Shown here in pieces: positions 21,108 to 44,299 of a DNA stretch of 64,000 bases (the stretch's first letter is position 1; every line of letters starts with the position of its first letter). This stretch comes from Qipengyuania psychrotolerans (lineage in GTDB: Bacteria > Pseudomonadota > Alphaproteobacteria > Sphingomonadales > Sphingomonadaceae): the NCBI RefSeq assembly GCF_019711355.1, contig NZ_CP081297.1, positions 248,001-312,000 on the forward strand, given 5' to 3'. The notes under the pieces were generated by a model. That model was not told the origin of the DNA. It saw nothing but the letters and a program-made list of their open reading frames with translations, and did not search any database. Made by a program: the position numbers and the translations under genes.

Positions 21108-21392
21108 ATGACAATGCAACAACGCAGCTCAGACAGGAAGTCGACGAACATCGTCCTCGACTGCATCGTACGCAAACAGCGCGAGCAGGCGATCCTGTGT
21201 GACGTGTCACCAACCGGTTGCCGGATCGAGCTGTTCGACGCTGCCGTAGAGCTGGGATCGACCATCATCTTCGAGGTCGATGAAAAGCTGGGCTTTGCTG
21301 GCGAGGTCGTGTGGGTGCGGGGCGTTGAAGCCGGCGTGCGCTTCAGTCGTCCGCTGCTGCCGAAAATACTCACCGCGCTGGATCTGGATTAA
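21108..21392 (+). CDS. PilZ domain protein
   Basis: A single-domain PilZ protein of about 94 residues. The c-di-GMP-binding motifs are both present: RSSDR (RxxxR) at the N-terminus and DVSPTGCRI (D/NxSxxG) near residue 38. The start is taken at the ATG at 21108; further upstream in-frame codons give an N-terminus unlike the family, and the ATG two codons later is also possible. It probably changes partner binding when c-di-GMP is bound; the partner is unknown. Confidence 0.85.
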   Translation: MTMQQRSSDRKSTNIVLDCIVRKQREQAILCDVSPTGCRIELFDAAVELGSTIIFEVDEKLGFAGEVVWVRGVEAGVRFSRPLLPKILTALDLD

Positions 21393-22279
21393 CCGAGCCG
21401 TTTGCAGATCGCCTCGGCAAGCCGCATTCCCAATTGGCTGCCTTGCTGCGGGTAGAGATAAGGCTCGATCATTTCTGCCTCCATGACCGCAAGCTCGCCG
21501 GTGGCCAGCCGCGCCATGTCGATGCGGCAATAGAGCGCATCTGCGAATGGCAATGCGCGTTCAATAGTTCTGGCGCACTCAAGGTCACCAGGTGGGGGCG
21601 CATAGTCGCATTCATATCCGCCATAGAGGGACTGGATGCGGTATTCGTCCTGCGCCGCCCGTTTCTGGACGCCGTGGGAATATTCGCCGTCGATGAAGAC
21701 AAAGGTGTATTCACCTTCCTCCACAATACTGGGGAGGAATGGCTGGATCATGCAGGGCCGCCCCATGGACCAGTCTGCTTCCGGCAAGCTGGCGCGGGTG
21801 AAGCTGTATTGCCCGATCCCTCCGGCGCCGACCTGACGCTTTACCACCACGCGGTCGGTGCCGAAGTGGTCCATCGCCCCAGTCACAGCTTGCCTGTCTG
21901 CGTCCTCCAGCCACAGCGTCGGCACGGTGGTAGCGCCGCGCTGCTCGAGATCCTTCAAATAGCTCTTGTCGGAATTCCACCGCACGATGTCTGGCGAATT
22001 CTGGACCGTGATGCCGTGCTCTTGCAAGGCAGCCAGCTTGGCGATGAATTCGCGGGGATGGTCCTGATAGTCCCAGGCCGTACCCAGCAACACCATCGCC
22101 ATGCCGGCAAACTGATCCAGTGGTGAGCGCCAGTCCAGCTCCACCAGTTCCAGCCCGGCATCGGCGAATGCCGGGCGCAATGCTTTGACTTCCAGATCGT
22201 GCTCGAACGCGTCGCCGCGTCGTTCCCCGTCACCGGGCAAGGTATCCTTGCATGCAAGGAAGCCGATGCGGGTCGTCAC
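21389..22279 (-). CDS. ATP-grasp domain protein
   Basis: A protein of about 296 residues with an ATP-grasp fold like that of RimK and glutathione synthetase. Recognisable parts are the substrate domain with LGTAWDYQDHPREF, the ATP-binding VVKRQVGAGGIGQYSF glycine-rich loop, MIQPFLPSIVEEGEYTFVFIDGEYSHG, and the metal-binding EAEMIEPYLYP near the C-terminus. I place the start at a GTG two bases after the stop of the PLP-enzyme gene; longer versions starting inside that gene are possible. It probably ligates an amine or amino acid to a carboxylate. Its partner gene suggests a sulfur or amino-acid substrate. Confidence 0.78.
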   Translation of the reverse strand: MTTRIGFLACKDTLPGDGERRGDAFEHDLEVKALRPAFADAGLELVELDWRSPLDQFAGMAMVLLGTAWDYQDHPREFIAKLAALQEHGITVQNSPDIVRWNSDKSYLKDLEQRGATTVPTLWLEDADRQAVTGAMDHFGTDRVVVKRQVGAGGIGQYSFTRASLPEADWSMGRPCMIQPFLPSIVEEGEYTFVFIDGEYSHGVQKRAAQDEYRIQSLYGGYECDYAPPPGDLECARTIERALPFADALYCRIDMARLATGELAVMEAEMIEPYLYPQQGSQLGMRLAEAICKRLG

Positions 22280-22280
22280 T

Positions 22281-23591
22281 TCAGACGGTCTCGAGTGCCT
22301 GCTCGAAATCGGCGATAAGGTCATCTGCATCCTCGATTCCGATCGAAATACGCACGAGATTATCGGATATACCCAATTCCGCCCGGCGGCCTTCTGCCAC
22401 CGAAAGGTGGGTCATGCTGGCCGGATGGCTGGCAAGCGTTTCCGTGCCGCCCAGGCTGACTGCGAGCTTGGCAATCTTCAGGCTGTCGAGGAACCGGAAG
22501 CATTCAGCCTCGCCGCCCTTGAGAAGGAGCGAGAAGGTCGATCCTGCGCCCAGGCAATGGCGGTCGTAGATATCCTGCTGGCGCTCGTCCTTGATCATGC
22601 CGAGGTAGCCGAGGCCTTCGACCTTGGGGTGCTTAGACAGGTAATCGCAGACCTTGATCGCATTCTCGCCGGCGCGCTGCATCCGTAGTTCGACCGTTTC
22701 GAGCGAACGCAGCAGCATCCATGCCGTGTTCGGATCGCAAATACCGCCCATGGTGTTGCGCAGGGCGCGGACGGGATCCATCCATTTCTTCGCGCCTGCG
22801 ATGCTGCCGGCAACAAGGTCCGAATGGCCGCCGACATACTTCGTGAGCGAGTAGACCACGATGTCTGCTCCGTGATCGAGCGGGCGCTGCCACAGCGGGC
22901 CGAGAAACGTGTTGTCGATCGCGATGGGGCAGTCCCAATCAAGCGCCGCATCGCGGGCTGCCTTGACCGCTTCGATGTCGACCAGTGCGTTGGTCGGATT
23001 GCCCGGGCTTTCGAGGTAGATCATGCAGACCTTGCCGCCCTGATCGCTTGCCTGGACCTTGGCCTTTTCAAGCACAGCGTCGATTTCCTCGCGCGTGGCA
23101 CCGGCCGGGAAATCGATGTAGGTGACGCCGAACTTCGCCAGCACCTTGGCGATGAAGCCTTCGGATGCGGCATAGAGCGGCCCGGAGTGGACGATAACGT
23201 CGCCCTGGCTCGCATAGGCCAGCAGCAGCACGCAAATCGCGGTCATGCCGCTGGAGAAGCTGAGCGCGTCTTCTGCGCCGTCCCAGATCGAAAGGCGATC
23301 TTCGAGAATTTCCTGGTTCGGAGCGTTGAAACGCGAATAGACGAGGCCGTCCGCGCCGCCGGGCCGTTTGCCGGTGATGCCTTCGAAGTGACGCTTGCCT
23401 TCTGCCGCGCTGGGGAATGCGAAGGTCGATGTCAGGAAGATCGGCGGTTTCAGGCTGCCCTCGGACAGCACCGGATCATAGCCATGACCCATCATCAGTG
23501 TGCTGGGCTTTAGCTCGCGCCCGGCGATTTTCGTCGCTTCGGGTTTCGGGGCCATTCGCGGGCTGGTCGGGTCGATATCGTGGTCGCTCAT
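22281..23591 (-). CDS. Cys/Met metabolism PLP-dependent enzyme (cystathionine gamma-synthase family)
   Basis: A 436-residue fold-type I PLP enzyme of the Cys/Met metabolism family. Diagnostic segments are YSRFNAPNQEILEDRL near residues 85-100, SFSSGMTAI near residue 115, IYLESPGNPTN, and SLTKYVGGHSDLVAG with Lys251 as the predicted PLP lysine. It could be a gamma-synthase, gamma-lyase or O-acyl-homoserine sulfhydrylase; the sequence alone does not decide. The start at 23591 is preceded by AGGAAGG. Its upstream leader folds into a four-way junction that can compete with a hairpin near the ribosome site, which suggests riboswitch-type control. It is coupled with the ATP-grasp gene. Confidence 0.88.
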   Translation of the reverse strand: MSDHDIDPTSPRMAPKPEATKIAGRELKPSTLMMGHGYDPVLSEGSLKPPIFLTSTFAFPSAAEGKRHFEGITGKRPGGADGLVYSRFNAPNQEILEDRLSIWDGAEDALSFSSGMTAICVLLLAYASQGDVIVHSGPLYAASEGFIAKVLAKFGVTYIDFPAGATREEIDAVLEKAKVQASDQGGKVCMIYLESPGNPTNALVDIEAVKAARDAALDWDCPIAIDNTFLGPLWQRPLDHGADIVVYSLTKYVGGHSDLVAGSIAGAKKWMDPVRALRNTMGGICDPNTAWMLLRSLETVELRMQRAGENAIKVCDYLSKHPKVEGLGYLGMIKDERQQDIYDRHCLGAGSTFSLLLKGGEAECFRFLDSLKIAKLAVSLGGTETLASHPASMTHLSVAEGRRAELGISDNLVRISIGIEDADDLIADFEQALETV

Positions 23592-23603
23592 GAGTAGGAG
23601 CAT

Positions 23604-23727
23604 CCTTCCTGTAGTCGAACGCTCCCAGGAAGGCGGGAGCTAGTTGGCGGGCGCGCGGCACCCGTTCCTAACCTCCGCAGGAACGCTTCTCCGCGCACAG
23701 CAATGACGCTTGCGCGGATAAGCTCCC
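23604..23727 (-). promoter_or_regulatory. Structured mRNA leader, riboswitch-like
   Basis: On the minus strand GGGAGCT (23727-23721) pairs with AGCTCCC (23641-23635) to close three internal hairpins: CCGCGCA/TGCGCGG (23717-23711 with 23697-23691), GTTCCT/AGGAAC (23684-23679 with 23669-23664) and GGGTGC/GCGCCC (23663-23658 with 23654-23649). The last pairs with a G-U only on this strand, so the minus strand is the sense RNA. The 3' arm of the closing stem can instead pair with GGGAGC at 23626-23621, and CCTTCCT at 23633-23627 is complementary to the AGGAAGG ribosome site at 23610-23604. This is the layout of a translational riboswitch, but I do not recognise a known class. Confidence 0.5.
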
Positions 23728-23818
23728 ATGACCGTCAGATCAAGCGAAGGAAGCTAATTGATCGCGATTGCTTCGAGCCGTTACCGAGCAGGATGAAGTC
23801 CGACAATGCCGGGGCTGA

Positions 23819-25231
23819 TCAACCAGTAATCTGTGCCATTCCCCAAACGACCAGAACGATCATTACGATACCGACCAGATCGAGCAGGAACCCCGCTTTT
23901 ACCATTCTATCGATCTTTATCCGGCCCGTAGCCCATGCAATCGCATTGGGACCGGTTCCAGCTGGAAGCATGAAGCCCCAGCTCGCAGCCAGCGCGGCCG
24001 GCATGGCTAGGAGGATCGGATCGGCACCAAGAGCAACCACCAGGCTGGCGACCACGGGGATAATCCCGCTGGCCGTGGCCACATTGCTGGCAAACTCGGT
24101 GATCAGAACTACCATGGCCACAATAGCAATTGCGACGAGGATCAGCGGCCACGTCTCGAGCGGCAACAAGGCGTTGCCAAGCCAGTCGGCCAGCCCGCTG
24201 GCAGACATGCCCGCTGCAAGCGCAAGCCCGCCGCCAAACATCATGATCACGCCCCAGGGCGCGCGGTCAGCCTCTTCCCAGACGAGGAGTGGGCGGCCCG
24301 TACCGTCTGGCAGAAGGAAGAGCGCAAGGCCCATCGCAATTGCGATAGTACCGTCGGTCAGCGATCCGTCAGGCAGGAACGGCGCAATCCATCGCTGACC
24401 CATCCAGAGCATGAAGGTCACCGCAATGATCGGCACCAATCGCCGTTCCGCACTGGACCAGGCAGTATGGCTGTCGATAGCCTTGCGTGCGGTGGCGGTG
24501 TCGAAGGGGATATCCGAAACGCGCTGGACCTTGGCGATCAGCCACGCGGCAATAGGAATGCCGATGATGACTACTGGAAGACCGTAATAGGCCCACTGCG
24601 CAAAGGTAATCCGGGTGCCCGTCAGGGTGTCGAGCAGCCCGACAGCAATCGCGTTTGTCGGCGAGCCGACAAGCGTACCGAGCCCGCCTATACTGGCGGC
24701 AAAGGCAATTCCCATGGGCAGGGCGCCGGCAAGGCCATCCTGTTCGGCATCGGGGGACCCTCCGCCGCGCAAAACCGCGATTGCCATGGGCATCATGATG
24801 AGCGCAGTCGACGTGTTCGAGATCAGCATGGACAGAACCGCTGCCGTGATCATGAAGGCGAGCAGCACACCTGTCTGTCCGCCCTTGGCTCCGACCATGC
24901 TCAGCAATGCGAGCGCAAGTCGCCGGTGCAGACCTGTCCGCTCGATCGCCAGGGCAATAAAAGCGCCGCCGAGGATCAGGAAGAGGATCGGAGAATAGTA
25001 TGCGCTCGCAGTCGTTCGGGCGTCCATTACGCCCGCGAAAGGTAACACGAGAAATGGCATCAGCGCCGTCGCCGTAAGGGGAAGGGCTTCGGTCATCCAC
25101 CAGGCGGCCATCAGTATGACGAGGCCGGCGACGATAAGCGCCTGCCGGTCCATCCCGGATGGAAGCGGCGCAAAGATGGAAAGGACAAGGGCCGCAAGCC
25201 CCGCTGCAAGCCCGATATTCTTGGCCGTCAC
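23819..25231 (-). CDS. SLC13/DASS family anion:sodium symporter
   Basis: A 470-residue inner-membrane transporter with about eleven to twelve hydrophobic segments. The two repeated SNT-type substrate/sodium motifs are visible, ISNTSTALIMMPMA near residue 140 and a second hairpin with TEFASNVATASGIIPV near residues 375-395. Members carry dicarboxylates, citrate or sulfate with sodium. The cargo cannot be told from sequence. It is on the same strand as, and upstream of, the PLP-enzyme gene, but a 227-base gap with the structured leader separates the two. Confidence 0.9.
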   Translation of the reverse strand: MTAKNIGLAAGLAALVLSIFAPLPSGMDRQALIVAGLVILMAAWWMTEALPLTATALMPFLVLPFAGVMDARTTASAYYSPILFLILGGAFIALAIERTGLHRRLALALLSMVGAKGGQTGVLLAFMITAAVLSMLISNTSTALIMMPMAIAVLRGGGSPDAEQDGLAGALPMGIAFAASIGGLGTLVGSPTNAIAVGLLDTLTGTRITFAQWAYYGLPVVIIGIPIAAWLIAKVQRVSDIPFDTATARKAIDSHTAWSSAERRLVPIIAVTFMLWMGQRWIAPFLPDGSLTDGTIAIAMGLALFLLPDGTGRPLLVWEEADRAPWGVIMMFGGGLALAAGMSASGLADWLGNALLPLETWPLILVAIAIVAMVVLITEFASNVATASGIIPVVASLVVALGADPILLAMPAALAASWGFMLPAGTGPNAIAWATGRIKIDRMVKAGFLLDLVGIVMIVLVVWGMAQITG

Positions 25232-43130: not shown

Positions 43131-43221
43131 TGGCGGAGCAGGAGGGATTCGAACCCTCGATACGGGGTTACCGTATACACACTTTCCAGGCGTGCGCCTT
43201 CGACCACTCGGCCACTGCTCC
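43131..43221 (-). tRNA. tRNA-Ser (anticodon GGA)
   Basis: A 91-nt serine tRNA with CCA encoded. The acceptor stem is GGAGCAG with CTGCTCC, the D arm reads TGGCCGAGTGGTC, the anticodon GGA is at 43187-43185, the variable arm is long as in class II tRNAs, and the T arm is GGGTTCGAATCCC. It decodes UCC and UCU. It lies downstream of hspQ on the same strand, with its own promoter candidate in between. Confidence 0.97.

Positions 43222-43909: not shown

Positions 43910-44299
<390 letters not shown>

What the first reader, a model, noticed from the sequence alone, without database searches (positions are those of the whole stretch)
23604..23727. Four-way-junction leader with a competing hairpin before a Cys/Met-metabolism gene
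Seen: a 7-bp closing stem encloses three hairpins, and its 3' arm can pair instead with a downstream GGGAGC. A CCTTCCT segment is complementary to the AGGAAGG ribosome site. A G-U pair in the third hairpin works only on the minus strand, the sense strand of the PLP gene. Inference: a translational riboswitch or thermosensor for a sulfur or amino-acid metabolite. I do not recognise the sequences of SAM-I, SAM-II, SAM-IV, SAH or other known classes.
Basis: partly seen in the sequence, partly recalled or inferred. Interest (0 to 1): 0.8.

Follow-up and report, generated by a model that had tools for sequence, protein, structure and literature searches.

The report
New RNA leader before sulfur-enzyme gene
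A folded RNA that the RNA-family library does not hold sits at the start of the message for a sulfur-amino-acid enzyme in one bacterial family, and it probably hides or frees the site where ribosomes bind, although what it senses is unknown.

Summary
Directly upstream of a Cys/Met-metabolism PLP enzyme gene (minus strand, start 23591) lies a conserved structured RNA, about 23708-23604. I collected 155 distinct copies; each lies just upstream of a homologue of this gene. No Rfam 15 family matches.

Fold: stem P1; internal loop; stem P2 with near-invariant loop UGCGGAGGUUA; stem P3 with near-invariant loop GCCUUCCU; then the SD, AGGAAGG. P2 and P3 covary: 57 of 708 cells changed on both sides, shuffled mean 14.4, 0 of 500 shuffles as high. 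P1 is supported by partner swapping.

Most likely mechanism: the P3 loop pairs either with the SD (translation off) or with GGAGG in the P2 loop (translation on), set by an unknown ligand or protein. The complementarities are seen; the switching and the ligand are inferred. A conserved short ORF and SAM/SAH-riboswitch membership were tested and not met.

The parts
23738..23743 (-). promoter -35-like TTGATC
   Evidence: best TTG..N17..TA pair; 145 of 155 leaders have theirs within two neighbouring 5-nt bins of distance
23715..23720 (-). promoter -10-like TATCCG (a weak match); transcript start inferred near 23708
   Evidence: start position is inference
23691..23698 (-). P1, 5' strand GUGCGCGG
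   Evidence: P1 supported by partner swapping
23686..23690 (-). internal loop, 5' side AGAAG (AGANG in most relatives)
23680..23685 (-). P2, 5' strand CGUUCC
   Evidence: covariation
23669..23679 (-). P2 loop UGCGGAGGUUA, near invariant; holds GGAGG
   Evidence: 88 of 92 model-found rows identical over 12 nt
23663..23668 (-). P2, 3' strand GGAACG
   Evidence: covariation
23659..23662 (-). internal loop, 3' side GGUG
   Evidence: varies in relatives
23651..23658 (-). P1, 3' strand CCGCGCGC
23635..23640 (-). P3, 5' strand GCUCCC
   Evidence: covariation
23627..23634 (-). P3 loop GCCUUCCU, near invariant; complementary to the SD and, with one bulged base, to GGAGG of the P2 loop
   Evidence: 85 of 92 model-found rows identical
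23621..23626 (-). P3, 3' strand GGGAGC
   Evidence: covariation
23604..23610 (-). Shine-Dalgarno sequence AGGAAGG
   Evidence: AGGAAGG in 71 of 146 leaders with a start codon found
22281..23591 (-). regulated gene: cystathionine gamma-synthase family PLP enzyme (NF005455/PRK07049); an in-frame ATG also at 23603

Best explanation
A new cis-acting leader RNA, found so far only in the family of this organism, made as the first ~100 nt of the enzyme's mRNA and acting on translation. Shown here: stems P2 and P3 (covariation), stem P1 (partner swapping), two near-invariant loops, an SD complementary to the P3 loop, one gene only. Inferred: the P3 loop has two exclusive partners. Paired with the SD (CCUUCC with GGAAGG, an H-type pseudoknot around P3) it blocks initiation; paired with GGAGG in the P2 loop (one base bulged) it frees the SD. 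The P1/P2 domain is where an unknown signal, most plausibly a metabolite of sulfur amino-acid metabolism, sets the balance.
For: Covariation of P2 and P3 on 59 sequences not chosen by pairing. P1 pairs better with its own partner: -16.7 against -15.4 kcal/mol (sd 0.2, 20 swaps), 6.5 against 5.4 bp. 155 of 155 distinct copies lie upstream of a homologue of the enzyme gene on the same strand. SD region pairs with the P3 loop at -9.9 kcal/mol on average, with 39 mechanical window ORFs of 250 aa or more at -5.5; AGGAAGG in 71 of 146 leaders against 0 of 39. The only P3-loop base that varies in the 92 model-found rows is the fifth, the one that would be bulged against GGAGG. Enforcing P2 and P3 costs a median of 1.8 kcal/mol, which fits a poised fold.
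Against: No ligand, expression or probing data. The two loops hardly vary, so neither loop pairing can be tested by covariation. The P3 loop pairs more weakly with the P2 loop (-7.5) than with the SD (-9.9). The 9 leaders with P3 loop GCCUCCCU or GCCUGCCU mostly have only short SD complementarity, and some divergent leaders have the SD far downstream. Best folds contain P2 in 105, P3 in 62 and both in 45 of 155 leaders; for the window leader the best fold is another one. One associated gene gives little ligand information.
Confidence: 0.55

Rival explanations
1. The same folded leader is read by a protein (for example a regulator or the enzyme itself) or by a small RNA that binds the P2 loop, not by a metabolite.
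For: One gene only and an 11-nt near-invariant loop are also what a protein or sRNA site would show.
Against: Nothing found points to a particular protein or sRNA; not searched for.
Confidence: 0.25
2. A descendant or look-alike of the SAM/SAH riboswitch: the P3-SD pseudoknot binds SAM or SAH.
For: Its loop, as numbered in PMC7367207 (passages; the exact letters partly recalled), resembles GCCUUCCU; that loop also pairs with the SD in an H-type pseudoknot and its last U pairs with the ligand adenine.
Against: RF01727 does not match the leader at E up to 10, nor in a search of the own genome and 20 relatives, where 0 of 21 genomes reach the cut-off and none of the 4 weak own-genome matches is at the leader. 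P3 is a plain 6-bp stem, without the extra A-C and A-G pairs described.
Confidence: 0.1
3. A leader-peptide attenuator: the invariant loop would read Cys-Gly-Gly-stop (UGC GGA GGU UAG).
For: The frame exists; an in-frame ATG, GTG or TTG lies within 12 codons upstream in 110 of 155 leaders (ATG 67, GTG 28, TTG 15).
Against: 45 of 155 have no such start; the codon three before UGC is ATG in only 61; stem changes alter the encoded residues and 2 leaders have a stop in the stem; the stems covary as RNA.
Confidence: 0.04
4. An RNA thermometer that melts to free the SD.
For: The SD can be paired in a local hairpin or pseudoknot.
Against: Melting needs neither an upstream P1/P2 domain nor near-invariant loops (inference).
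Confidence: 0.03
5. The first reader's four-way junction with a 7-bp closing stem GGGAGCT/AGCTCCC.
For: The complementarity is there.
Against: The 5' arm lies in the promoter spacer and outside the conserved block.
Confidence: 0.03

Closest known systems
SAM/SAH riboswitch (RF01727)
   Same: Alphaproteobacterial, H-type pseudoknot that takes up the SD, CUUCC-type loop, gene of methionine/SAM metabolism (PMC7367207, passages)
   Different: Covariance model does not match; extra P1/P2 domain with its own near-invariant loop; different gene
metXZ RNA element of beta-proteobacteria (PMC4239095, passages)
   Same: Conserved leader of methionine-pathway genes with alternative pairings and a proposed pseudoknot
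   Different: Beta-proteobacteria, terminator-antiterminator, metX/metZ genes; its letters were not seen, so no sequence comparison was made
Guanidine-II riboswitch (abstract of PMC9094411 in the listing)
   Same: Two hairpins proposed to form a kissing loop
   Different: A likeness of layout only; no Rfam 15 match here; ligand and genes unrelated

Membership tests
Any family of Rfam 15 | score at or above the family's gathering threshold | tested here: not met
   window: two tRNAs only; E up to 10: two miRNA families far below threshold
SAM/SAH riboswitch RF01727 | match to the covariance model | tested here: not met
SAM/SAH riboswitch RF01727 | SD taken up in a pseudoknot by the hairpin loop | tested here: inconclusive
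   complementarity present and commoner than in 39 window ORFs; pairing itself not shown
SAM/SAH riboswitch RF01727 | binds SAM and SAH | not testable with these tools
   needs a binding experiment
Riboswitch (any class) | conserved structured RNA in the 5' leader, upstream of a fitting gene | tested here: met
Riboswitch (any class) | direct binding of a small molecule | not testable with these tools
   needs in-line probing or similar
Leader-peptide attenuator | conserved short ORF with start codon | tested here: not met
   45 of 155 without in-frame start within 12 codons

The most novel reading that the evidence does not exclude
A new riboswitch class for a sulfur-amino-acid or adenosyl metabolite in which one hairpin loop (CCUUCC) chooses between an SD-like decoy (GGAGG) held in the loop of the sensing hairpin and the real SD (GGAAGG): the sensor carries its own copy of a ribosome binding site as a competitor.
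Probability: 0.3. Interest if true: 0.78.

Novelty: new variant of a known kind. Interest (0 to 1): 0.6.

Why it matters
It is a strongly supported RNA family without a match in Rfam 15. It sits on a Cys/Met-metabolism enzyme whose substrate the searches here do not settle, so its ligand would also be a clue to the enzyme. A published survey lists, for Sphingomonadales, one methionine regulon in 7 of 7 genomes (SahR, as I read the column; PMC4239095, passages) and no riboswitch. The proposed decoy-SD competition can be tested directly with loop mutants.

Tried and rejected
Four-way junction: not supported. The two miRNA matches (25.8 against a cut-off of 57 bits, 18.3 against 90) fall on an inverted repeat of this species that begins inside the promoter; taken as chance. 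Short ORF: not conserved. SAM/SAH membership: not met. Weak model matches in the order search: of 15 genomes whose best match is weaker than E 1e-5, plus a second weak match in G312, I fetched nine places (L148-L156, 26-33 bits); none has the enzyme gene in the ~4 kb fetched and 5 of the 9 also match on the other strand, so they look like palindromic repeats; the rest were not fetched. An alternative helix GGGNGCC/GGCNCCC, which would compete with P3, was looked at by eye only: mismatched in many leaders, absent in the Novosphingobium-type leaders; not adopted. Single-sequence folding was of no help for the window leader.

Literature: searches (listings and abstract starts only) and passages found by terms in PMC11109978, PMC6429828, PMC4239095, PMC8632094, PMC7367207 and PMC2864571 showed no description of this element. 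The library holds open-licence papers only; the 2017 paper I know (from recall) as a survey of 224 motifs is not held, so it was checked only through Rfam.

Full report
WHAT IS THERE. The finding lies between a DASS-family anion symporter gene (23822-25231, minus) and a gene for a cystathionine gamma-synthase family PLP enzyme (NF005455/PRK07049, 660.3 bits, cut-off 504; PF01053). The sense strand is minus. In the PDB the best sequence matches are 5ijg ('Cys/Met metabolism pyridoxal-phosphate-dependent enzyme') and 7swh ('putative cystathionine gamma-synthase'), then methionine gamma-lyases; the substrate is not settled by this. Rfam 15 gives nothing here at gathering thresholds and only two miRNA families far below threshold at E up to 10.

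CONSERVATION. Blastn of the intergenic leader matches in 60 of 60 genus genomes searched (own genome included), one match each, mainly window 23694-23598. A protein scan gave the best 80 orthologue loci (more existed than were kept); 68 of the 79 with upstream DNA carry the element, 11 do not (L070 is cut off). The covariance model R1 was built on 59 of the 85 distinct leaders then in hand. It finds one copy in the own genome at E up to 10. Among 396 genomes of the order 141 match at E up to 0.1; by my count of the listing 126 of these reach 1e-5, all in the same family. Among 385 genomes of the class 3 match, all in the same family, own genome included; an exact loop-to-loop pattern matches 5 of 398 genomes of the phylum, all in the same family. 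The last two samples hold few genomes of the family, and the large searches used strict filters. The enzyme gene is more widespread: 93 of 119 family genomes have it at E up to 1e-150.

STRUCTURE. P2 (CGUUCC/GGAACG) and P3 (GCUCCN/N'GGAGC) were counted on 59 sequences chosen by orthology or blastn and a loop motif, not by pairing: 98.6% of cells paired (shuffled 91.4%), 57 of 708 cells changed on both sides (14.4), 19 further pair types (11.7), each 0 of 500 shuffles as high; pairs with a change on both sides 6 (4.5; 32 of 500 shuffles as high); registers slid by 1 to 3 columns give 0 to 17 double-change cells. The sequences are related, so shuffles overstate significance; the slid registers are the fairer control. 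RNAalifold on 92 model-found rows predicts the same stems, 8 of 14 pairs with double change (that alignment leans to the model). P1 is variable in sequence: duplex energy with the own partner -16.7 against -15.4 kcal/mol for swapped partners (sd 0.2 of 20 swaps); 6.5 against 5.4 bp, and 107 of 155 leaders with 6 bp or more against a mean of 69 and a maximum of 80 in 200 swaps. The loops: in the 92 model-found rows, without a motif filter, the P2 loop with its closing G reads UGCGGAGGUUAG in 88 and the P3 loop GCCUUCCU in 85, GCCUCCCU in 6, GCCUGCCU in 1. In the 155 distinct leaders, which were picked with a motif filter, the figures are 151 and 146. The 155 come from 193 loci given to the script; it left out loci already seen to lack the element (L076-L083), the weak places L148-L156 and the repeats L114-L143; identical cores were counted once and five loci gave none (L057, L062, L070, L071, L146). 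L146 has a divergent P2 loop.

PLACE IN THE MESSAGE. In 155 of 155 distinct copies a homologue of the enzyme follows on the same strand within 560 nt. A TTG-N17-TA promoter-like pair lies at nearly fixed distance: 145 of 155 in the bins 45-54, while best sites of shuffled DNA spread over all bins (the score rewards TTG and TA, so the base counts alone prove little, the positions do). In the window this is 23743-23738 and 23720-23715, so transcription should begin near 23708, at the foot of P1. That removes GGGAGCT (23727-23721) from the RNA. The SD follows P3: of 85 leaders 66 have AGGAAGG exactly, 61 of them after a linker of 6 to 9 nt, five after 10 to 28. Of 146 leaders with a start codon found (9 of 155 without), 71 have AGGAAGG in the SD window, 41 more GGAAG, 25 more AGGA, 9 none of these. 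Among 39 mechanical ATG ORFs of 250 aa or more in the window (not curated; some may not be genes) 0 have AGGAAGG and 1 GGAAG. None of the 11 orthologues without the element shows AGGAAGG in the last 70 bases printed.

HOW IT PROBABLY WORKS. CCUUCC of the P3 loop is complementary to GGAAGG of the SD and, with one bulged base, to GGAGG of the P2 loop; both pairings cannot hold at once (from the sequence). P3 with one loop base before CCUUCCU and a 6-9-nt linker to the SD has the proportions of an H-type pseudoknot (general knowledge). Off state, on state and the role of P1/P2 as sensor are inference. Average pairing energies are -9.9 kcal/mol for P3 loop with SD region and -7.5 for P3 loop with P2 loop, so the off pairing is the stronger on its own. 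Best folds hold P2 in 105, P3 in 62, both in 45 of 155 leaders, and enforcing both costs a median of 1.8 kcal/mol: compatible with a poised switch, no proof of it.

AGAINST. Of the 9 leaders with a changed P3 loop most have only short SD complementarity, and some divergent leaders carry the SD far downstream. Near-invariant loops forbid a covariation test of either loop pairing. The window leader alone folds best in another way and is not unusual for its composition from 23708 on (z -1.11). There is no ligand evidence; neighbours vary (DASS homologue upstream in 51 of 68 loci with and 5 of 11 without the element; ATP-grasp homologue downstream in 21 of 65 with and 0 of 11 without).

COMPARISON. 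The SAM/SAH riboswitch works in a similar way (PMC7367207, passages) but its model does not match: works alike perhaps, member no. The metXZ element is beta-proteobacterial and transcriptional (PMC4239095, passages). The guanidine-II riboswitch is a likeness of layout only (abstract).

VERDICT. A real leader RNA with no Rfam match, strongly supported as a structure, with a plausible but unproved mechanism and unknown input.

Noticed in passing
upstream of element leaders (e.g. L018) and at or near the start codon in loci without the element (e.g. L057, L071, L077, L078, L251, L255, L260, L268): A palindrome like GGTTNCANNTGNAACC, which looks like a repressor or activator site: best site with at most 2 mismatches in 75 of 155 element leaders (0 of 155 shuffled), mostly near the -35; also in 16 of 30 orthologue upstreams without the element (no shuffle control for these; one place counted twice, L057 and L267).
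   Followed up: partly
21389-22330, minus: The ATP-grasp-like gene after the enzyme overlaps its end; best NCBIfam match is D-cycloserine synthetase DcsG, far below cut-off (107.7 against 360 bits); no Pfam match at E up to 0.001. A homologue follows in 21 of 65 element-bearing loci.
   Followed up: partly
L147, L158, L162, L226, L240, L241, L254: Divergent or neighbouring lineages keep the two hairpins but have a long insert between P3 and a separate SD, so SD capture may work differently there.
   Followed up: no
L149, L150, L152, L153, L156: Weak model matches on both strands at the same place suggest a palindromic repeat family in some related genomes, three places in one genome (G371).
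   Followed up: partly
43134-43221 minus and 43910-43996 plus: Two tRNA genes, the only Rfam matches in the window at gathering threshold.
   Followed up: no
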